Shown here: positions 13,181 to 29,555 of the stretch, one piece after another | Numbering within the stretch: position 1 is the first letter of the stretch | How the letters are laid out: each line of letters begins with the position of its first letter | NCBI GenBank assembly: GCA_019748215.1 | Contig: JAIEPV010000264.1 | Location: forward strand, 1-34,510 | DNA: 34,510 nucleotides | From: Hyphomicrobium sp. | GTDB lineage: Bacteria; Pseudomonadota; Alphaproteobacteria; Rhizobiales; Hyphomicrobiaceae | Direction of reading: 5' to 3' | Notes under the pieces: generated by a model | What the model was told of the DNA's origin: nothing | Database searches by the model: none | The model's input: only the letters and a program-made list of their open reading frames with translations | Position numbers and translations under genes: made by a program

Positions 13181-14569
13181 CTACTGAGCAAAAAGTTTTG
13201 TCGCCCAATCCGGATCGATATGATCCTGCGGCTTCTTTTTCAGTGGCCGTGATCGAGCTATTTTCGCTCCAGGCTTTGGTGCCGCCGCTTGAGTTTTCGC
13301 AGCGACGTCAGGTTTTGCGGCAGTGGTCGTCTCTGGTACCTCGATAGTCGATGGTTTGTTTTCGTTGACACCCGGAGCAACGAATTCCGACGGCGTCTCA
13401 AGCGTAGACAGACTTCGTGTCGCCCCTCGGTTTTGCGACCCATCGTCGGCTTTGGTCTGTTGCCCGAGGCTTTTTTCTAGGCGCTCGATTTCAACTTTCA
13501 GTTCTTCGCGTTGCTTACTGCGCCGCACCACGCCAATTTGCAGTTGGCCGATTTCCCGGTAAAGGGAACCGATCTTCGCCGAATTGGCCTCGCCCGACGT
13601 CGATCGTTGCAGCTGGAACACCCGGTCCCAATCGCGGCGATTTTCGTCGCTCATCTGGTCGACGCGTTGTTTCAGCTGCACCAACGCGGCGTTGGCAGCG
13701 GTATTGGCAGACTCAGTCTTGAGTTTGATTTCATTTTCAAGCAGCCGCACGCGACCCTGCAACTCGGCATCGTTCGTTGTTTTTGCGGTTGGATCGAAGA
13801 AGAATTCGCCCGTCAACGCCGAGTGATCCCAAGGCACCTGTTTGCCAGACGTCGCGGCCACCACGTCTTTGCGCACGTCGATCATAACCGAGGTCAGGCT
13901 TTTGCCAGGTTGGCGCATGTATTTAAGAAGCGCCGACGCGAACGGAGAGTTTCGCCCATCGCCATCGAGCGCCACATTGCCCGGCTGAGTCGAATAAGAA
14001 ATAAAAGTGCCGATCCCAGCAATGGTTTCCGCCAATCCGCTGCCGATACTCGTCGATCGCGTCCCCATGCTGCGCGCCAGATTTCGGGACAGCGGGTTGT
14101 TGCGGCACGCATCGAGAAAAACGATGTTGGTTTTGGTTTCTCGATCGATTTCCATCTGCTTCAAAACGAAATCAAGACTGACCGCTTCGAATTCGACATC
14201 GCGTTCGCGCTCGAGTTGGGCGTCGATCGGAACCAGGTAATTGCGTCCCGCAATCTGCAGGCCATGACCAGCATAGAAGAGCAAGGCAGCATCAGCGCTT
14301 TCCAAAGAGCGCGAGAATTCACGCAGCTTGGCGTCGAAGGCCACCTTGTTGAGATCAACGCCGAGCATGACCTCGAAACCGGCTTGCTGCAGCTTGGCCG
14401 CGATATCTCGCGCGTCATTCGACGTGTTGGCAAGCGGAGTGGCGTGCACGTAAGCCGAATTTCCCACGACAAGGGCAACGCGCTTGCTCGCCGCGGCAGG
14501 CTGTAGCCCGCACAGCAAAATTGCCAAGCTAAGAATTAGCCGACTTGGACTGCGCATTGTCCGACCCAT
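13181..14569 (-). CDS. Secreted caspase-like protein (peptidase C14 family) with coiled-coil and Pro/Lys-rich tail
   Basis: This is a caspase-fold cysteine peptidase of the prokaryotic C14 type. After a signal peptide (LILSLAILLCGLQPAAA) the p20-like domain begins at KRVALVVGNSAYVH, with LANTSNDARDIAAKL following. The catalytic histidine lies in YAGHG (residue 102 with this start) and the catalytic cysteine in FLDACRNNP (residue 155). An SYSTQPGNVA-DG segment typical of the family follows. After about residue 265 the sequence changes to a charged coiled coil (LLENEIKLKTES... EELKVEIERLEKSL) and ends in a low-complexity Ala/Pro/Lys tail. The start is uncertain: ATG 14593 adds eight residues and a Met further in gives a shorter signal peptide; none has a strong ribosome site. 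Both catalytic residues are intact. Substrate and role are unknown, and the gene stands alone. Confidence 0.85.
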   Translation of the reverse strand: MGRTMRSPSRLILSLAILLCGLQPAAASKRVALVVGNSAYVHATPLANTSNDARDIAAKLQQAGFEVMLGVDLNKVAFDAKLREFSRSLESADAALLFYAGHGLQIAGRNYLVPIDAQLERERDVEFEAVSLDFVLKQMEIDRETKTNIVFLDACRNNPLSRNLARSMGTRSTSIGSGLAETIAGIGTFISYSTQPGNVALDGDGRNSPFASALLKYMRQPGKSLTSVMIDVRKDVVAATSGKQVPWDHSALTGEFFFDPTAKTTNDAELQGRVRLLENEIKLKTESANTAANAALVQLKQRVDQMSDENRRDWDRVFQLQRSTSGEANSAKIGSLYREIGQLQIGVVRRSKQREELKVEIERLEKSLGQQTKADDGSQNRGATRSLSTLETPSEFVAPGVNENKPSTIEVPETTTAAKPDVAAKTQAAAPKPGAKIARSRPLKKKPQDHIDPDWATKLFAQ

Positions 14570-14599
14570 GTCACTCGCTAACGACGTCGCCATTTAATT

Positions 14600-20466: not shown

Positions 20467-22185
20467 TTGGCCCCGCCAGTGGATGCTCCAACCGAAAAGC
20501 TCTCAAGTCCGATGCCGACGACACAAATCGTAGCGCCGCTATTGTCAACTGGGCAGGCAGCAGCCCTCAATGATGCCCGGGCATGGCCATTTGAAGAAGC
20601 GCGCCGGCTAATCAAGCGCCTCGATCAATTGCCTGGCGGCGACGCAAAGACCGTTCTGTTTGAGACCGGCTATGGGCCTTCGGGGCTTCCGCACATCGGC
20701 ACCTTCGGAGAGGTGGCGCGAACGACGATGGTGCGCCACGCGTTCGAGATACTGACCGAAGGCCGCCGCGCGACCCGACTGATCTGTTTTTCCGACGACA
20801 TGGACGGCCTTCGGAAAGTTCCAAGCAACGTGCCGAACCAGGATCTGCTGCGCCAGCACCTCGACAAGCCGCTGACCGTCGTGCCCGATCCATTCGAGAA
20901 ATTCGAGAGTTTTGCTCACCACAACAATGCGATGTTGCGCGATTTTCTTGATCGCTTCGGTTTTTCTTACGAATTCTATTCTGCTACTCATTGCTACACG
21001 TCCGGCATGTTCGATGCCGCGTTGCTGAAGATGCTCACAACCTACGATAAGGTCATGTCCATCATGCTGCCGACGCTCGGCAGTGAACGACAAGCGACCT
21101 ACTCGCCGTTCTTGCCGGTTTGTCCGCGAACCGGGCGAGTGCTCCAAGTTCCGATGGTCGCTCGCGACGTTGACGCCGGGACGATCACGTACATTGACCC
21201 AGAGACCGGAGATAGAGTCGAAACGCTCGTCACAGGCGGCCGGGTCAAATGTCAGTGGAAAGCCGATTGGGCGATGCGGTGGACGGCGCTCGGTATCGAC
21301 TACGAAATGGCCGGAAAAGATTTGATCGACAGCGTCGCGTTGGCGTCCAAGATCTGCCAAGCATTGGGCGGTACGCCGCCGGAAGGTTTCAACTACGAGC
21401 TTTTTCTGGACGAGAATGGCGAAAAAATTTCGAAATCGAAGGGCAACGGCCTGACGATTGAGGACTGGCTGACCTACGCATCACCCGAGAGTCTCTCGCT
21501 CTACATGTTTCAAAAGCCAAAAACGGCGAAGAAGCTCTTCTTCGATGTGATCCCGCGCGCGGTCGATGAATATTTGCAGTTCCTTGCGAGCTTTGAAAAG
21601 CAAGACGGCAAACAGCAACTCGACAATCCGGTGTGGCACATTCATAGCGGTCATCCGCCACAGCCCGAATTGCCCATCACGTTTGGCTTGCTGCTGAACC
21701 TCGTGTCCGCCTCCAATGCCGCAAACAAAGACGTGCTTTGGGGCTTTTTGCGCCGTTACTCGCCGGGCGCGACGGCGGCGGCAAATCCGATTCTCGACAG
21801 GCTGTCGGACTACGCCATTCGGTACTTCAATGATTTTGTCAGGCCGTCTAAGAAATATCGATCACCCGATGACGTCGAGGCAGCGGCGCTGGCGTCTCTT
21901 GACGTCACGCTTGGCCGGCTGCCATCGACTGCGAGCGCCGACGAGATCCAGAACGCGCTTCTTGATGTTGCGCGAGCCATTCCACGCTATCAGGATACCG
22001 CCAAGGTAGGACCGCACGGTGGCCCGGGCGTCAAACTCGAATGGTTTCAAGCGGTTTACGAAACGTTGTTGGGTCAGGAGCGCGGGCCGCGCCTCGGCAC
22101 ATTTATCGCCCTGTACGGGATCGCCGAAACCCGCGCGCTCATTGCCCAGGCCGTCGCCGGCACGCTTGGCTCAGCAGCCGCATAG
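20467..22185 (+). CDS. lysK: Lysyl-tRNA synthetase, class I (archaeal type)
   Basis: The enzyme charges tRNA-Lys with lysine in an ATP-dependent two-step reaction. It is the class I form, unrelated in fold to the bacterial class II LysS, and typical of archaea, alphaproteobacteria and spirochaetes. Motifs seen are the HIGH-equivalent PHIGT in [15 protein letters not shown] (about residues 69-83) and the KMSKS-equivalent ISKSKGNG (about 321). [10 protein letters not shown] and [12 protein letters not shown], both characteristic of the family, also appear. The length of 572 aa with the tracked TTG start, or 557 aa from ATG 20512, is normal. Neither start has an obvious ribosome site, so the exact N-terminus is open. 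It is followed by a palindromic repeat and a convergent DUF262 gene. Confidence 0.96.
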
Positions 22186-22374: not shown

Positions 22375-24159
22375 TCAGTGCGAGATGGGGCGATCTGCCG
22401 GTAACGATGGCGACGCCAGCGTGTCCCCATCATCCAGGCGCCCGACCGACTTCCGCAAGGCCGTAAAATCGGTCCGCCACAAGCGGTCAATCATGCCGAT
22501 GAGTTTTTGCTCACGAGCGTCGACATCCTGTGGCCGCCATTCGGCCGTGTCCAACACGTCGTCGGTGATGGCCAGCAGCGGTGCCCTGACATTGGCGGCA
22601 GCATAGATGTCTTTTTTCGCATTCCACGAGGCGTTTCGCGCGCGATCGTTCTGTTGCTGGGTAATCAGCACCAAGTTGCCAAGACTTTCGGTGGCTCTGA
22701 CGCGCTCCTCGGATATTGGGAACCACCGTCGCCATTCGCTGGTCGCGGAGGGACGCTGCGGCAGCACGTGCTCGATGGTGTAGTCATCCGGTTTCACATT
22801 CGAAATATCGCCGCTCATCTCGTCACTCAATCGCAGCAGCAGCAGTTTGCACGCTTTGGGGTTTCGTTTGTGGAGATCCTTGAGATGAAACGCGATACTT
22901 CGTGTCTCCTCGCGGGTGAGTTGGAATACCGGGTGCGAGGCATTGACATTTGTATCCGAGCGAAGTGCCGCGATGATATCGCCAAAGCGACGGACCCGTT
23001 TGCCCGTACCTGCGCATAGCAATCGCATGAGAAGCGCAAACCGCTCAATTTCGCCAAGAAGTGCTGCGACGCGGACCGGGTCGCTTTCCAAGTCCTTCAT
23101 CACCAACATGGCAGCCGGCGCCCAATCGCCATCGGCCATGCGATTCAAATAATGTAAATGCCTTGCGATCGCTGGCGGAATGGCGTGTGTGCGACGCTGC
23201 CGGATGACGGCGTATGACTGCGCCAGCGGCACGAAAACCAACTTAAAAAACGCTTCCGCGCCGCCCGCTTGGCGAACGACGGCCCGCACCCCGGAGACAA
23301 TTTGCGGCCTCGTGTTGCCATAGATGGCTCGAACATGGGTGAAGAAATGCTCGAAATCCGCTCCGAGAGCTTGCCCAACTTCGTCCCACTTCCGCGATGC
23401 CCATTCAATATCGATAGCGGGCATCCGGCTTAGAACGTCGGCTTTCAGAATATCATTGCGCTGAAGTTTTTTGCCGCGTTCGTTCAACACGATGAACAGA
23501 CGGTGGGCGCGATCGATATCGCTACTGGCAATGACGACGACATGAACTTTGTCAGCCACGTAGGCGAACAAGCGTTCGCGATCATCTTCGGCGAGATCGC
23601 TGACCAAGGCTTTAAGCTTATCGCGCACAGCGAGCAGCGTTGATGGATTGCTCAACGGGTCGGAAAAAATCGGGTTGCTCAGTGTTCCGCCGACTTTAAG
23701 AATGTAGTCTTCAAGAATTTCGCGATCTTGGCTTTGCGCATGCAGGCGGTATCGCTCAGTGCGAAAAAAACGGCTACCCATTTGCGCGATCAGCATCGAC
23801 TGGGCGCGGCGCGCGAGCGGTCGTCGCGGATTGGTTTCGAAGTCGCGCAATACCGCAAACAGTGTCATCAGCGAGACGAGGCGTTGCTGGCCGTCGACGA
23901 TGTCGAACTCCCGCATCGGAATTTTTGACGTGAGACGTTTCAGTTCCAAGCCTGACCCGTCCATGAGCAGGATTGTGCCGATGAAGTATCCGGGATCCGC
24001 TGAACTTTCGCCGTCGAGGGTCATTGCCTCCAGCAAGTCGTCAAAGAGCTGCTCGGCCTGATCGCCACCCCATGAGAAAGGCCGCTGGTACACCGGCACA
24101 TTCAACAGAAATGGGGTCGACAAGAGGTTCGAGATTGTCAATGAAGCAGCCGGTAGCAC
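22375..24159 (-). CDS. DUF262-DUF1524 protein (GmrSD/SspE-like, candidate type IV restriction or phage-defence nuclease)
   Basis: The 594-aa protein combines both halves of the GmrSD architecture in one chain. At the N-terminus are PVYQRPFSWGGDQAEQLFDDL and FDIVDGQQRLVSLMTLF, the Y-QR-W and DGQQR motifs of DUF262, a ParB/Srx-like NTP-binding domain (DGQQR at residues 89-93). Near residues 462-515, YTIEHVLPQ, ESLGNLVLI and QQNDRARNASW form the HNH-like DUF1524 nuclease motif, with the catalytic His in IEHVLPQ. Known members cleave modified phage DNA (GmrSD) or act in phosphorothioate defence (SspE). The GTG start is backed by GGAGAG nine bases upstream. Both key motifs are intact. No methylase, phosphorothioation or other defence gene is adjacent, so defence is an inference from architecture. 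It is convergent with lysK. Confidence 0.87.
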   Translation of the reverse strand: MLPAASLTISNLLSTPFLLNVPVYQRPFSWGGDQAEQLFDDLLEAMTLDGESSADPGYFIGTILLMDGSGLELKRLTSKIPMREFDIVDGQQRLVSLMTLFAVLRDFETNPRRPLARRAQSMLIAQMGSRFFRTERYRLHAQSQDREILEDYILKVGGTLSNPIFSDPLSNPSTLLAVRDKLKALVSDLAEDDRERLFAYVADKVHVVVIASSDIDRAHRLFIVLNERGKKLQRNDILKADVLSRMPAIDIEWASRKWDEVGQALGADFEHFFTHVRAIYGNTRPQIVSGVRAVVRQAGGAEAFFKLVFVPLAQSYAVIRQRRTHAIPPAIARHLHYLNRMADGDWAPAAMLVMKDLESDPVRVAALLGEIERFALLMRLLCAGTGKRVRRFGDIIAALRSDTNVNASHPVFQLTREETRSIAFHLKDLHKRNPKACKLLLLRLSDEMSGDISNVKPDDYTIEHVLPQRPSATSEWRRWFPISEERVRATESLGNLVLITQQQNDRARNASWNAKKDIYAAANVRAPLLAITDDVLDTAEWRPQDVDAREQKLIGMIDRLWRTDFTALRKSVGRLDDGDTLASPSLPADRPISH

Positions 24160-24368
24160 GAGACGTCGCTCTCCAAGGATTTATTCAGCGAATTCTTCCC
24201 ATCGCAGGTATCGAAATCGGTGACCGTTAAACATAGCATGCCGCACACTGCACTTGTGCTCAAAACTGAGCCGACCGGACATTTTTTTGGCCGCGGTTGC
24301 GACGCGATGCGGCAACGATAATTGAACGGTGTAGTGGAGATGTGGCGAGTGGCGGGAATGGGAAAGCG

Positions 24369-24773
24369 ATGACCCCGATTGTGAACGACGAACTAAGTGC
24401 GTCACCCGATCGCAGCGCCACGCGCGTGTGTGTGTACAAAATCGTCGCGCACGGCGACTGGAGTACGGCGCAGGCGGCGGGCATGTTCGCCGGCTCTGCG
24501 GATGATCGCCGCGATGGCTTCATCCATCTCTCGACAGCCGATCAAGTGGCAAGCACGCTCGAACATCATTTCACCGGCGCATCAGACCTTTTACTTGTCG
24601 CATTCGATGCGGCCGGCCTTGGTGCCGCTCTTCGTTTCGAGGCATCCCGGAACGGTGCGATGTTCCCGCATTTTTATGGGGCCCTGCCAACGTCCGCAGC
24701 TTTGTGGCAGAAAAGCTTGCCGATGACGATCAACGGCAACCCCACCTGCGATCCGGCATGGTACCTATGTTAA
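24369..24773 (+). CDS. DUF952 domain-containing protein
   Basis: The 134-aa soluble protein matches the DUF952 pattern: VYKIVAHGDW, AGMFAGSADDRRDGFIHLST, ADQVASTLEHHF, DLLLVAFDA, LRFEASRNGAMFPHFYG and a final LPMTINGNP. The conserved DGFIHLS and FPHFYG are complete. The biochemical role is unknown; the fold has been compared with ADP-ribosyl-related enzymes. ATG 24369 is chosen because the ORF-track start at 24297 adds unrelated residues and GGGAAA lies just upstream of the chosen ATG. Its stop overlaps the pyrD start by seven bases, so the two are translationally coupled. I recall this DUF952-pyrD order from other alphaproteobacteria. Confidence 0.88.
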   Translation: MTPIVNDELSASPDRSATRVCVYKIVAHGDWSTAQAAGMFAGSADDRRDGFIHLSTADQVASTLEHHFTGASDLLLVAFDAAGLGAALRFEASRNGAMFPHFYGALPTSAALWQKSLPMTINGNPTCDPAWYLC

Positions 24774-25858
24774 ACGGCCTGTATTTTCTCGCCCGGCCGG
24801 CCTTATTCGCCATGCAGCCGGAAGATGCTCACGAAGCGACGCTCAAAGCGCTTGAAGCCGGTCTTTATCCTCGTCAACTCGGTATCGACGATCCATGCCT
24901 GTCCCAGCTCGTGATGGGTTTGTCGTTCTCGAACCCGGTCGGCATTGCCGCAGGGTACGACAAGGATGCGCGCGTGCCCGATGCGGTCATTGGTCTTGGC
25001 TGTGGGTTCGCAGAAATCGGCACCGTCACACCTAGGCCGCAGGATGGAAATCTAAAGCCTCGCGTCTTTCGCCTTGTTGCCGAGCACGGCCTGATCAACC
25101 GGCTCGGCTTCAACAACAAGGGCCACGCCGCAGCCCTTGCCAAGTTGCGCGCGCGTCAGAATCGCGGCGGCATTGTCGGCGTCAACATCGGCGCCAACAA
25201 AGAGAGCGCCGACCGCGGGGCCGATTACGTCGCAGGGCTTGAAGCATTTAACGGGGTCGCGAGCTATTTCACCATCAATATTTCATCGCCAAACACGCCG
25301 GGCCTGCGCGATCTCCAAGCGCCGGCCGCGCTCGACGAACTCCTTGGCCAGATCATGGCCGCACGATCCAAGCTGGTTGCCAGCGGAGCGCCGCGCCGCC
25401 CGATCGTTGTCAAGATCGCGCCCGATATCGCTGAAGATGACATCGCTCCAGTCTGTGAACGCCTTCGCGCTCATAACGTCGATGCGATCGCTGTCTCGAA
25501 TACGACACTTGGCCGCGGCGGGATGACGAGTGATGGCGCCCACGAGCAGGGCGGGCTATCGGGCCGACCACTTTTCACGCGGTCAACCGTTCTGCTGGCG
25601 CGTATCTACCGGCAAACAAACGGTGAAATTCCGCTTATCGGAATTGGTGGCATCGACAGTCCCGAAACCGCCTTGGCGAAAATCGAAGCCGGGGCCTCGC
25701 TGCTCCAGATTTACACCGGGCTGATCTATGAAGGCCCGGGGTTGATTTCTCGCATCAAGCGGCACCTAGCTGCCAGTGTTCGCCGCGCGGGCGTCAGTAA
25801 CCTCGGTACAATAACAGGACGTGATGCTGCAGCGTGGGCCGCTCGGCCATTAGTTTAG
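24767..25858 (+). CDS. pyrD: Dihydroorotate dehydrogenase, class 2 (quinone)
   Basis: PyrD oxidises dihydroorotate to orotate with FMN and passes electrons to the quinone pool at the inner membrane, in de novo pyrimidine synthesis. An N-terminal amphipathic membrane-association helix (LNGLYFLARPALFAM) marks class 2. Family motifs are NPVGIAAGYDKDA, EIGTVTPRPQDGN, NRLGFNNKG and GVNIGANKES. NISSPNTPGLRDLQ follows, with the catalytic serine of class 2 enzymes, then AVSNTTLGRGG and the FMN-phosphate loops IGIGGIDSPE and LLQIYTGLIYEGP. ATG 24767 gives 363 aa, normal for the family; the tracked start at 24704 reads through the DUF952 gene. It overlaps DUF952 by seven bases. Confidence 0.96.
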   Translation: MLNGLYFLARPALFAMQPEDAHEATLKALEAGLYPRQLGIDDPCLSQLVMGLSFSNPVGIAAGYDKDARVPDAVIGLGCGFAEIGTVTPRPQDGNLKPRVFRLVAEHGLINRLGFNNKGHAAALAKLRARQNRGGIVGVNIGANKESADRGADYVAGLEAFNGVASYFTINISSPNTPGLRDLQAPAALDELLGQIMAARSKLVASGAPRRPIVVKIAPDIAEDDIAPVCERLRAHNVDAIAVSNTTLGRGGMTSDGAHEQGGLSGRPLFTRSTVLLARIYRQTNGEIPLIGIGGIDSPETALAKIEAGASLLQIYTGLIYEGPGLISRIKRHLAASVRRAGVSNLGTITGRDAAAWAARPLV

Positions 25859-26185: not shown

Positions 26186-26266
26186 TTTCGCGAGCTATGA
26201 TGCTCGCCTACCATGGTCTGCCATCAATAGGCGAGCCAAACACCGAGCGTGAGCGTACATTCCTGC

Positions 26267-28831
26267 ATGGCAGAAGCACGGCAGACTTCGCGACGTCAGA
26301 AACGCGCAGCTCTTTCGAGCGCCGCGCCACTTGCGACTGAAGCGCCATCACTGCCGCCAGTGATCGACGACTGGTTTCACCGCAAAGGTTGGCAGCTTCG
26401 CCCGCACCAGGTGGCGTTGCTGAAAGCAGCGGAAGCCAGGCAATCGACACTTCTCGTGGCGCCAACTGGAGCGGGCAAAACGCTCGCCGGATTTTTGCCG
26501 AGCTTGATTTCTTTATCGCGACCGAGATTTGAAAAACGCGGAGCCGGTCTTCGCGTGCTCTACATCTCTCCGCTCAAGGCGCTCGCGGCCGATGTGGCTC
26601 GCAATCTCATCACTCCGATCGACGAAATGGGCCTGAAAATTCGCACCGAAACCCGTTCGGGCGATACCAGCGCCGCTCGCCGGCAAAGGCAGCGAACACA
26701 CCCGCCGCATATCCTTTTGACGACGCCGGAGCAGGTGGCGCTATTGCTCAGCCACCCCGACGCAGGCTTTCTGTTTGCTGATCTCGAGACCATCATTCTC
26801 GATGAGCTGCACGCGCTCGCTGCTTCAAAGCGGGGCGATTTGCTCGCGCTCGACGTGGCGCGTCTGCGGACACTCGCCGACGGCGTCATGACCATAGGCC
26901 TGTCGGCGACCGTCGCGCGGCCAAGCGAATTGCGCGCGTATCTCGTCCCCCAGCCGCAGCCAGACACCCACATTTATCTCGCCCATCTCGTCACAGTTTC
27001 CGGCGGCGCGCCGCCGGACATCCGCATTCTCGAAGCTGAAACGGCGGTCCCGTGGTCCGGCCACACCGCGCGCTACGCGATGCGCGAAATCTACGATGTC
27101 ATCCGATCGAACAAGCTTGCCATTGTTTTCGTCAACACGCGAATGCAAGCGGAATACTTGTTTCAAGAACTATGGCGCGGAAACGACGACAACTTGCCGA
27201 TCGGCCTGCACCACGGTTCGCTTGACGCAAAGCAGCGCAACAAAGTCGAAGCTGCGATGGCGGATGGGAGCTTGCGCGCCGTTGTCGCCACGTCGACGCT
27301 CGACCTCGGCATCGATTGGGGTGACGTCGACATTGTCATCAATATTGGTGCGCCGAAAGGCGCCAGCCGGCTGTTACAGCGCATTGGCCGATCCAACCAC
27401 CGATTGAACGAAGCCTCGCGCGCAGTTCTTGTGCCCGGCAATCGCTTCGAAGTTCTTGAGTGTCGCGCGGCCCTCGACGCCGCCGAGGCAGGATCTCAGG
27501 ACGCATTCCTCAGCCGATCTGGGGCGCTCGACGTGCTCGCACAGCATATCCTAGGCATGGCCTGCGCAGCGCCGTTTTCGCCGGATGCATTGTTCGCTGA
27601 AGTTCGCTCGGCGCTCCCCTATTCCGATCTGACCCGACTGCAGTTTGACCGCGCCGTCGATTTCGTCGCGACCGGCGGCTACGCGCTTCGCGCTTATGAT
27701 CGATTTGCCAAGCTGAAAGCCACAGACGATGGCCTGCTGAGAGTCTCGAACGCTCGGGTCGTTCAGCAATATAGGCTCAATGTCGGCACGATCGTCGATA
27801 CGCCGTTGCTCAAAGTTCGTCTCATATCCGGCAAGCGTACGCGCGCGGCATTGCAGGGCGGACGCCCACTTGGCGACATTGACGAATATTTCGTCGAACA
27901 GCTGACACCGCGTGCAACGTTCGTGTTCGCTGGCGAGGTGCTTCGTTTTGAAGGCTTGCGGGACACCGAAGTGTTTGTCTCACGCGCCACAGCGAGCGAT
28001 CCGATGATCCCCAGCTATGGCGGCGGACGCTTCCCGATGTCCACGCACTTAGCGGCGCGCGTGCGCGGCATGTTGGCGGATACATCGTCGTGGTCGGCAC
28101 TACCCGAACCGGTCGCAGACTGGCTGCGCTTGCAAGCTCATCGATCGGTTATTCCCGAAGCCAATGAAGTGCTCGTTGAGACATTTCCGAGAAACAGCCG
28201 TCATTATCTGGTCGCCTATCCGTTCGAGGGCCGGCTGGCGCATCAGACGCTCGGCATGCTGCTGACCCGGCGCCTCGATCGCGCTGGCGCCAAGCCCTTG
28301 GGGTTCGTTGCCAACGACTATGCGCTGTCGATTTGGGGCCACGGCGACATGTCGGACATGATTGCGACGGGCCGATTGTCTCTTGCCGATCTTTTTGAGC
28401 AGGACATGCTCGGCGACGACCTCGATGCTTGGCTGGCGGAAAGCAGCCTGATGAAGCGGACGTTTCGACACGCGGCCGTCATTGCCGGCTTGATCGAACG
28501 GCGCCATCCAGGCAAAGAAAAATCGGGCCGCCAGGTCACGATGTCGACCGATCTCGTCTATGACGTGCTGCGCCGCCACGATCCGGGACACCTTCTGCTC
28601 GAAGCCTCATGGGCCGATGCCGCATCAGGATTGCTGGATATCGCGCGCCTCGGCGAATTTCTTGCGCGCATCAAAGGACGAATCAGCCATCAACCATTGA
28701 GCCGTGTGTCGCCGCTATCAGTTCCCGTCCTTCTCGAAATCGGCAAGGAGCAGGTGTATGGCCAAGCGCACGACGCTCTGCTGCGGGATGCCGCTGACGC
28801 GCTAATCCGCGAAGCGATGGGGGATATTTGA
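26267..28831 (+). CDS. Ligase-associated DEAH-type helicase (Lhr-like, superfamily 2)
   Basis: This ATP-dependent DNA helicase of the Lhr family is the type found with ATP-dependent DNA ligase, an exonuclease and a phosphoesterase in bacterial repair clusters. Motifs are a Q-motif-like RPHQ, Walker A APTGAGKTLAGF (about residue 65), motif Ib YISPLKALAADV, TTPEQ, a DELH box in place of DEAH (ILDELHA, about 180), SATVARP (III), IVFVNTRMQAE (IV), ATSTLDLGIDWGDVD (V) and QRIGRSNHR (VI). The large C-terminal part carries Lhr-type winged-helix and DUF4145-like segments. The tracked GTG 26249 and ATG 26267 are both possible; I use the ATG (854 aa). The gene ends one base before the phosphoesterase start, indicating coupling. 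Confidence 0.92.
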   Translation: MAEARQTSRRQKRAALSSAAPLATEAPSLPPVIDDWFHRKGWQLRPHQVALLKAAEARQSTLLVAPTGAGKTLAGFLPSLISLSRPRFEKRGAGLRVLYISPLKALAADVARNLITPIDEMGLKIRTETRSGDTSAARRQRQRTHPPHILLTTPEQVALLLSHPDAGFLFADLETIILDELHALAASKRGDLLALDVARLRTLADGVMTIGLSATVARPSELRAYLVPQPQPDTHIYLAHLVTVSGGAPPDIRILEAETAVPWSGHTARYAMREIYDVIRSNKLAIVFVNTRMQAEYLFQELWRGNDDNLPIGLHHGSLDAKQRNKVEAAMADGSLRAVVATSTLDLGIDWGDVDIVINIGAPKGASRLLQRIGRSNHRLNEASRAVLVPGNRFEVLECRAALDAAEAGSQDAFLSRSGALDVLAQHILGMACAAPFSPDALFAEVRSALPYSDLTRLQFDRAVDFVATGGYALRAYDRFAKLKATDDGLLRVSNARVVQQYRLNVGTIVDTPLLKVRLISGKRTRAALQGGRPLGDIDEYFVEQLTPRATFVFAGEVLRFEGLRDTEVFVSRATASDPMIPSYGGGRFPMSTHLAARVRGMLADTSSWSALPEPVADWLRLQAHRSVIPEANEVLVETFPRNSRHYLVAYPFEGRLAHQTLGMLLTRRLDRAGAKPLGFVANDYALSIWGHGDMSDMIATGRLSLADLFEQDMLGDDLDAWLAESSLMKRTFRHAAVIAGLIERRHPGKEKSGRQVTMSTDLVYDVLRRHDPGHLLLEASWADAASGLLDIARLGEFLARIKGRISHQPLSRVSPLSVPVLLEIGKEQVYGQAHDALLRDAADALIREAMGDI

Positions 28832-28832
28832 C

Positions 28833-29555
28833 ATGGCAGGGTTGAAGCCAGAGCGATTGGGCCTCGATGATTTCGCCGATCAGCCGATATCGATATGCGG
28901 CAAAGCGTTTCGCGCGCACAAGTCAGGCGCGCTTTACTGGCCTGCTGAGCGCGCACTGATCGTTGCCGATCTCCATTTCGAAAAAGGGTCGTCCTTCGCC
29001 ACGCGCGGTCAAATGCTGCCGCCCTACGACACGCGCGAGACGCTCGCAAAGCTTGCCCGCGCTATTGATACTTACGACGTCGAGACCGTCATCGCCCTAG
29101 GCGACAGCTTGCATGACGTGCGGGCCGTTGAACGCATGAACGCGCGCGACCTTGAGGGTCTGGCGATATTGCAGGAGGATCGCGATTGGATCTGGATCAC
29201 GGGCAATCATGACACCGTTCTCGACAAGCGTCTTGGCGGCGTCGTGCTCAACGATGTGACTGTCGAAGGCATCACCTTCCGGCATGAACCGGCCGTTGGA
29301 GCGGTGACGCATGAAATTGCCGCGCATCTGCATCCAGCGGCACGCTTGAAAATGAATGGCACGGTGTTGCGCCGGCCGTGCTTCGTCGGCAATGGACTAC
29401 GGCTCGTCATGCCGGCATTTGGATCCTTTACCGGCGGCTTGAACGTTCTTGATGAGGCGTTCCATCCGCTCTTCGACTCTGACGGCATTGCCGTGTGGAT
29501 GTTGGGCCAAGAAGGCTTGTATCCTGTCGCATCACGGATGCTCTGCGGCGATTGA
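28833..29555 (+). CDS. pdeM: Ligase-associated DNA damage response endonuclease/phosphoesterase PdeM
   Basis: The 240-aa calcineurin-like metallophosphoesterase belongs to the ligase-associated DNA repair set. Metal-binding motifs in order are ADLHFEKGS (Asp46, His48), LGDSLHD (Asp91), TGNHD (Asn125-His126), then HEP (151) and HLHPA (165-168). The dimetal centre therefore appears complete. Tail motifs FTGGLNVLDEAF and MPAFGSF are family-typical. ATG 28833 follows the helicase stop by one base, with GGGGGA upstream. The usual cluster partners (ATP-dependent ligase and ligase-associated exonuclease) are not beside it: helicase-upstream and PdeM-downstream genes are unrelated, so they must lie elsewhere or be absent. 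Confidence 0.93.
   Translation: MAGLKPERLGLDDFADQPISICGKAFRAHKSGALYWPAERALIVADLHFEKGSSFATRGQMLPPYDTRETLAKLARAIDTYDVETVIALGDSLHDVRAVERMNARDLEGLAILQEDRDWIWITGNHDTVLDKRLGGVVLNDVTVEGITFRHEPAVGAVTHEIAAHLHPAARLKMNGTVLRRPCFVGNGLRLVMPAFGSFTGGLNVLDEAFHPLFDSDGIAVWMLGQEGLYPVASRMLCGD

What the first reader, a model, noticed from the sequence alone, without database searches (positions are those of the whole stretch)
22375..24159. Single-chain DUF262-DUF1524 protein as a stand-alone defence candidate
Both the DGQQR nucleotide-binding motif and the IEHVLPQ...N nuclease motif are intact in one polypeptide, as in fused GmrSD and SspE proteins that act against phage DNA. It sits alone between housekeeping genes lysK and DUF952-pyrD, with no modification genes, so it may recognise modified foreign DNA directly (type IV logic). 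Its long central part (about residues 200-450) may set target specificity.
Basis: partly seen in the sequence, partly recalled or inferred. Interest (0 to 1): 0.6.

Follow-up and report, generated by a model that had tools for sequence, protein, structure and literature searches.

The report
Restriction-type nuclease fixed in Hyphomicrobiaceae
This gene encodes a nuclease of a family known for destroying phage DNA, but instead of coming and going like a normal defence gene it sits at the same chromosomal spot, between two housekeeping genes, in almost every member of the bacterial family Hyphomicrobiaceae and evolves as slowly as its housekeeping neighbours.

Summary
In detail: window 22375-24159, minus strand, encodes a 594-aa protein with intact GmrSD_N (DUF262) and GmrSD_C (DUF1524) domains and invariant catalytic motifs. 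By sequence and predicted fold its nearest solved relatives are SspE, DndI and BrxU. The picture of a variable, stand-alone defence gene is not supported. All 22 genomes of the genus (Hyphomicrobium) carry it, and 99 of 103 family genomes carry a homologue. In 85 of 97 loci examined it lies next to pyrD and/or lysK. Its dN/dS (about 0.06-0.10 within the genus) matches pyrD and the Lhr-type helicase. Its tree disagrees with its neighbours no more than they disagree with each other. In contrast, HsdR and other DUF262 genes in the genus are patchy, and DndC is absent. Other genera hold up to three GmrSD paralogue types at this locus, alone or in tandem. The stretch proposed to set specificity is not fast-evolving. 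Best reading: a core, vertically inherited, NTP-gated HNH nuclease. Its likeliest job is constant surveillance against foreign or modified DNA; a domesticated DNA-maintenance role is the main rival. No phenotype is known, so the biological role is inferred.

The parts
22375..24159 (-). Single-chain GmrSD-family protein (DUF262 + DUF1524), 594 aa, GTG start; locus-type clade A
24070..24087 (-). Conserved N-terminal Q25-R26...W30 motif (in YQRPFSW); aligns with the PT-sensing patch of SspE/DndI, but Y24 is F in many relatives
23881..23895 (-). DGQQR NTPase motif (residues 89-93); D, G, second Q and R invariant in 47 relatives
23452..23496 (-). Second conserved NTPase-domain block F222..N226..G229..D236 (FIVLNERGKKLQRND); lost in paralogue clade B
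22759..22773 (-). HNH motif, first element E463-H464-V-L466-P467
22615..22680 (-). HNH motif, remaining elements G494-N495 ... N504 ... N509 ... K515
20467..22185 (+). lysK, class I lysyl-tRNA synthetase; conserved convergent neighbour
24297..24773 (+). DUF952 protein; conserved divergent neighbour
24704..25858 (+). pyrD, dihydroorotate dehydrogenase; conserved neighbour across the family

Best explanation
It is a single-chain GmrSD-family enzyme that has become a core gene of Hyphomicrobiaceae, held between pyrD/DUF952 and lysK and inherited vertically. Inferred mechanism: the DUF262 domain binds and hydrolyses an NTP (DGQQR plus the F..LN.RG..L...D block) when it meets a recognised DNA feature; this releases the C-terminal HNH (DUF1524) domain to nick or cut that DNA, as shown for DndI, SspE and BrxU. 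Most likely role: constant surveillance against foreign or modified DNA (phage, plasmid), with no self-modifying partner. Shown here: architecture, motif invariance, fold, fixed locus, purifying selection, vertical inheritance. Inferred: NTP gating, cutting, and the defensive role.
For: Both Pfam domains intact. Catalytic residues invariant across 47 relatives down to about 20% identity. AlphaFold model, pLDDT 86, matches only SspE, DndI and BrxU in the PDB at E<=0.001. DndI with this architecture is an ATPase and nickase whose phage protection needs both activities (PMC11662687). The one free-standing chromosomal protein of this architecture with a phenotype that I found in the literature, PFLU4242 of P. 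fluorescens, causes plasmid-dependent SOS induction and has no detectable effect in plasmid-free cells (PMC8544851). Core status: 22/22 genus genomes and 99/103 family genomes have a homologue; 85/97 loci adjoin pyrD or lysK; dN/dS 0.06-0.10 in genus pairs, against 0.05-0.17 for pyrD; tree discordance no greater than among the housekeeping genes (14/24 shared splits against 13-15).
Against: Near-universal presence and slow evolution are unusual for defence genes; HsdR is in 8/18 good genus genomes and the extra DUF262 genes are also patchy. No defence island or mobile gene adjoins it. Some genera keep only clade B at this locus, which has DGHQR and has lost the N..G block while keeping the HNH motif, so NTP gating may not be needed at this locus everywhere. 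No activity has been measured.
Confidence: 0.5

Rival explanations
1. Domesticated housekeeping enzyme: a former restriction nuclease now used in normal DNA maintenance (for example removing abnormal or damaged DNA, or a repair or replication-stress role), so loss is selected against even without phages.
For: Fixed locus across the family, dN/dS like pyrD/lysK/Lhr, congruent inheritance, no fast-evolving specificity region, a GmrSD of one type or another retained at the locus. Neighbourhood includes an Lhr-type helicase and a metallophosphoesterase; in one genus the relocated copy sits beside a protein that reads as AddB (by eye).
Against: Patchy outside the family (18 of about 238 non-family genomes of the order sample; 4 of 288 other genomes in the class sample), so the function is not general. 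One isolate (G036) has a frameshifted only copy. PFLU4242 deletion has no effect in plasmid-free cells.
Confidence: 0.33
2. Ordinary accessory type IV restriction gene, present by recent acquisition in this strain.
For: Domain architecture and PADLOC matches (Orf5, HEC-06, SspE); homologues on plasmids at about 30% identity.
Against: Present in every genus member at the same site; identities track the neighbours (r 0.84-0.96); no mobile genes adjoin it; only three weak partial matches among 50,697 phage records.
Confidence: 0.05
3. PT-sensing effector (SspE/DndI type) that reads phosphorothioate marks.
For: Closest solved structures are SspE and DndI; the aromatic YQR patch aligns.
Against: No DndC-type protein in any of 22 genus genomes, even below the curated cut-off; no dnd or ssp gene was identified next to it. 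Reading PT on incoming foreign DNA is not excluded.
Confidence: 0.05
4. The pyrD-lysK interval is a recombination site into which different GmrSD alleles are exchanged, so locus conservation does not mean gene conservation.
For: Three paralogue clades (A, B and a C group) occur there in different combinations.
Against: Within the genus and the sister genus g10 all locus copies are clade A, with no well-supported conflict against neighbours; dS is like that of neighbours; a decayed A remnant beside an intact paralogue points to differential loss from an ancestral array.
Confidence: 0.07

Closest known systems
DndI (PDB 9JFL), DUF262-DUF1524, 596 aa
   Same: Same length and domain order, DGQQR and HNH; best global TM-score (0.46)
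   Different: About 15% structural-alignment identity; DndI works with dndBCDE-written PT marks, and no DndC was found in this genus
SspE (PDB 7DRS, 6JIV)
   Same: Same two domains and motifs; best Foldseek E-value (3.9e-13)
   Different: About 770 aa, part of the sspABCD-sspE system; PT-dependent
GmrSD / Eco94GmrSD / BrxU type IV restriction enzymes
   Same: All the sequence motifs that define the family (Machnicka 2015, PMC4619093); BrxU among structural matches
   Different: Known members tend to lie in defence or mobile regions; this one is fixed between housekeeping genes and its DNA target is unknown
PFLU4242 of Pseudomonas fluorescens SBW25
   Same: Chromosomal DUF262-DUF1524 protein; by inference the same kind of nuclease
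PADLOC Orf5 (PDLC02686) and HEC-06 models
   Same: Full-length matches, E 4.9e-75 and 4.5e-46
   Different: Model names only; no tested function found in the papers searched

Membership tests
GmrSD family (DUF262-DUF1524) | GmrSD_N domain with DGQQR motif | tested here: met
GmrSD family (DUF262-DUF1524) | GmrSD_C domain with (E/D)H..PQ, L(G/A)NL....N, N..F/W..K motifs | tested here: met
GmrSD family (DUF262-DUF1524) | Fold of solved members | tested here: met
   AlphaFold model matches SspE, DndI, BrxU
GmrSD family (DUF262-DUF1524) | Modification-dependent, NTP-stimulated DNA cleavage | not testable with these tools
   needs purified protein
GmrSD family (DUF262-DUF1524) | Location in defence or mobile region (typical, not strictly defining) | tested here: not met
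   fixed between pyrD and lysK across the family
SspE/DndI PT-sensing systems | PT modification genes (DndC-type) in the genome | tested here: not met
   0 of 22 genus genomes
BrxU | Encoded within a BREX island | tested here: not met
   neighbours are housekeeping genes
Accessory phage-defence gene | Variable presence among relatives | tested here: not met
   22/22 genus, 99/103 family; contrast HsdR 8/18 good genomes
Accessory phage-defence gene | Protects against phage | not testable with these tools
   no experiment

The most novel reading that the evidence does not exclude
A GmrSD-type nuclease has been domesticated as an essentially obligatory core gene of a whole bacterial family, kept at one locus as an ancestral array of up to three paralogue types with at least one usually retained, and serves a DNA-quality or self/non-self function that is part of normal physiology rather than optional immunity.
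Probability: 0.3. Interest if true: 0.75.

Novelty: new member of a known kind. Interest (0 to 1): 0.45.

Why it matters
GmrSD enzymes are treated as mobile defence genes. A lineage in which one is vertically inherited, under housekeeping-level constraint and nearly always at the same site gives a natural case for asking what free-standing DUF262-DUF1524 proteins do when they are not optional. It may also help explain PFLU4242-type chromosomal genes that decide whether plasmids are tolerated. Automated tools that match this gene (for example PADLOC models) would report a defence gene that is in fact a core gene here.

Tried and rejected
SOS control: no alphaproteobacterial LexA-type box (GTTC-N7-GTTC, GAAC-N7-GAAC or similar) within 230 bp upstream in 26 relatives. 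Phage origin: only three weak partial matches in 50,697 phage records. PT partner: none. An AU test alone rejected the neighbour topology for the gene, but the same test rejected every housekeeping gene against the others, so it does not show transfer. A fast-evolving central specificity region was tested for and not found. Streptomyces homologues (about 23% identity) share only part of a neighbourhood of their own; not pursued. Literature searches for a Hyphomicrobium or core-genome type IV enzyme gave nothing relevant. PFLU4242 could not be compared because its sequence was not held.

Full report
OBSERVATION. Window 22375-24159 on the minus strand encodes a 594-aa protein from a GTG start. 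The homologous start in relatives ([V/M]YPTASL...) supports it. Pfam gives GmrSD_N (residues 10-242, E 2.5e-28) and GmrSD_C (425-554, E 8.2e-22) and nothing else. PADLOC gives full-length matches to its Orf5 and HEC-06 models and weaker ones to SspE. The gene is the only DUF262 gene found in this 3.0-Mb genome.

STRUCTURE AND MOTIFS. An alignment of 47 relatives, down to about 20% identity, leaves these residues invariant: Q25, R26, W30, G61, D89, G90, Q92, R93, F222, N226, G229, D236, E463, H464, L466, P467, G494, N495, N504 and K515, with a few others. They are the GmrSD-family motifs described by Machnicka et al. 2015 (PMC4619093) plus the second NTPase block. An AlphaFold2 model (pLDDT 86.4, pTM 0.75) matches only SspE, DndI and BrxU chains in the PDB at E<=0.001. 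DndI has the best global TM-score (0.46) and the same length; the modest TM with a large rmsd probably reflects different domain placement (inference). Sequence search against the PDB agrees.

IS IT A VARIABLE GENE? No. The organism is a Hyphomicrobium: the closest named relatives are 93% and 64% identical. All 22 genomes of the genus have a copy, and 99 of 103 genomes of the GTDB family have a homologue at E<=1e-20 (75 of 76 good-quality ones). In the genus the neighbourhood Lhr-pyrD-DUF952-GmrSD-lysK-hydrolase-murein endopeptidase is conserved. Across the family, 85 of 97 loci examined place a GmrSD within 1.5 kb of pyrD (83) and/or lysK (53). Of the other 12, seven end within 2 kb of a contig edge, three (genus g8) are clearly relocated, and two (G071, G073) hold only a different, accessory clade there. 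So the 99/103 count slightly overstates presence of the locus-type gene. As contrast, in the same genus HsdR is in 8 of 18 good genomes, second DUF262 genes are in a minority, and DndC is in none. Outside the family, homologues are patchy: 18 of about 238 non-family order genomes and 4 of 288 other genomes in a class sample. Three order genomes of other families (G137, G124, G117) also have a distant GmrSD beside DUF952-pyrD, so the position may be older than the family. In several outgroups lysK lies near DUF952-pyrD without a GmrSD hit.

SELECTION AND INHERITANCE. Between the window and its nearest relative, dN/dS is 0.067 for this gene, 0.061 for lysK, 0.132 for pyrD and 0.073 for the Lhr helicase. 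Nine of ten clade A pairs within the genus and g10 give 0.06-0.10; the tenth, a very close pair, and the clade B pairs are mostly higher, as are their neighbours. dS is like that of neighbours. The least conserved parts are 111-200, 521-565 and the C-terminal tail. Pairwise identities correlate with neighbours at 0.84-0.96. Topology tests reject the neighbour tree for this gene, but the control shows every housekeeping gene is rejected in the same way, with 13-15 of 24 splits shared in all cases and no well-supported conflict for GmrSD. It is therefore inherited vertically as much as its neighbours are.

PARALOGUES AT THE LOCUS. Three groups occur in the family. A is the window type, with DGxQR (Q91 is L or F in some genera), the N..G block and the HNH motif. 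B has DGHQR in most members, has lost the N..G block and keeps the HNH motif; it is the only copy found in genera such as that of G062 (g11) and in g14. A third group (C, genera g7 and g5) keeps DGQQR. Tandem pairs run in the order pyrD-A-B or pyrD-A-C on one strand. In G022 the A copy has stop codons beside an intact paralogue, and in G023 only a weak A remnant was detected. One isolate, G036, has its only copy broken by a one-base insertion, which may be real or an assembly error. This looks like differential loss from an ancestral array, but it was not reconciled formally.

MECHANISM. By homology with DndI (ATPase and nickase; mutants in either activity lose phage protection; PMC11662687), SspE and BrxU (PMC10952713), the likely working is NTP-gated DNA nicking or cutting. 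PFLU4242, a chromosomal gene of this architecture, shows what such a protein can do: it has no effect alone but produces SOS and fitness cost when certain plasmids are present (PMC8544851, PMC11637435). I therefore favour constant DNA surveillance (0.5) over a domesticated maintenance role (0.33). Universality and slow evolution favour the latter; patchiness outside the family, a possible pseudogene and the PFLU4242 precedent favour the former.

VERDICT. The anatomy in the finding is correct; the evolutionary picture is not. It is a genuine GmrSD-family member in unusual circumstances: a core gene rather than an accessory one.

Noticed in passing
L056-L060, L063, L065, L153-L158, L164, L179 (family loci): Tandem GmrSD paralogues (A with B or C) on one strand beside pyrD; clade B has DGHQR and has lost the N..G block while keeping the HNH motif, so it may be an NTPase-altered partner.
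   Followed up: partly
L067, L160, L161 (genus g8): The relocated clade A copy sits just upstream of a large protein that reads as AddB (double-strand-break repair) in all three genomes; identity judged by eye, not by a family search.
   Followed up: partly
window 26249-29555: Lhr-type helicase followed by a metallophosphoesterase, next to pyrD; this resembles a DNA-repair pair and is part of the conserved neighbourhood.
   Followed up: no
about 70-130 bp upstream of the gene in L035, L036, L038, L040-L044, L046-L049: A recurring stretch like GTTGCTATCACG...GCAACC with inverted ends (GTTGC/GCAAC) in many genus members, not obvious in the window; possible promoter or operator, seen by eye only.
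   Followed up: no
plasmid records, e.g. H3-H20: Homologues at about 30% identity lie on Klebsiella and Enterobacter plasmids; 75 of 166 plasmid records with a match are predicted conjugative.
   Followed up: no
L109-L137 (Streptomyces): Streptomyces homologues share a partly conserved neighbourhood, including a ParB-like ORF about 1 kb upstream in 11 loci (named by eye).
   Followed up: partly
window 13181-14593, minus strand: Protein that reads as a secreted caspase-like (peptidase C14) protein; not searched.
   Followed up: no
L167 (G036): The clade A gene is broken by a one-base insertion in this isolate, with intact flanks; pseudogene or assembly error.
   Followed up: partly
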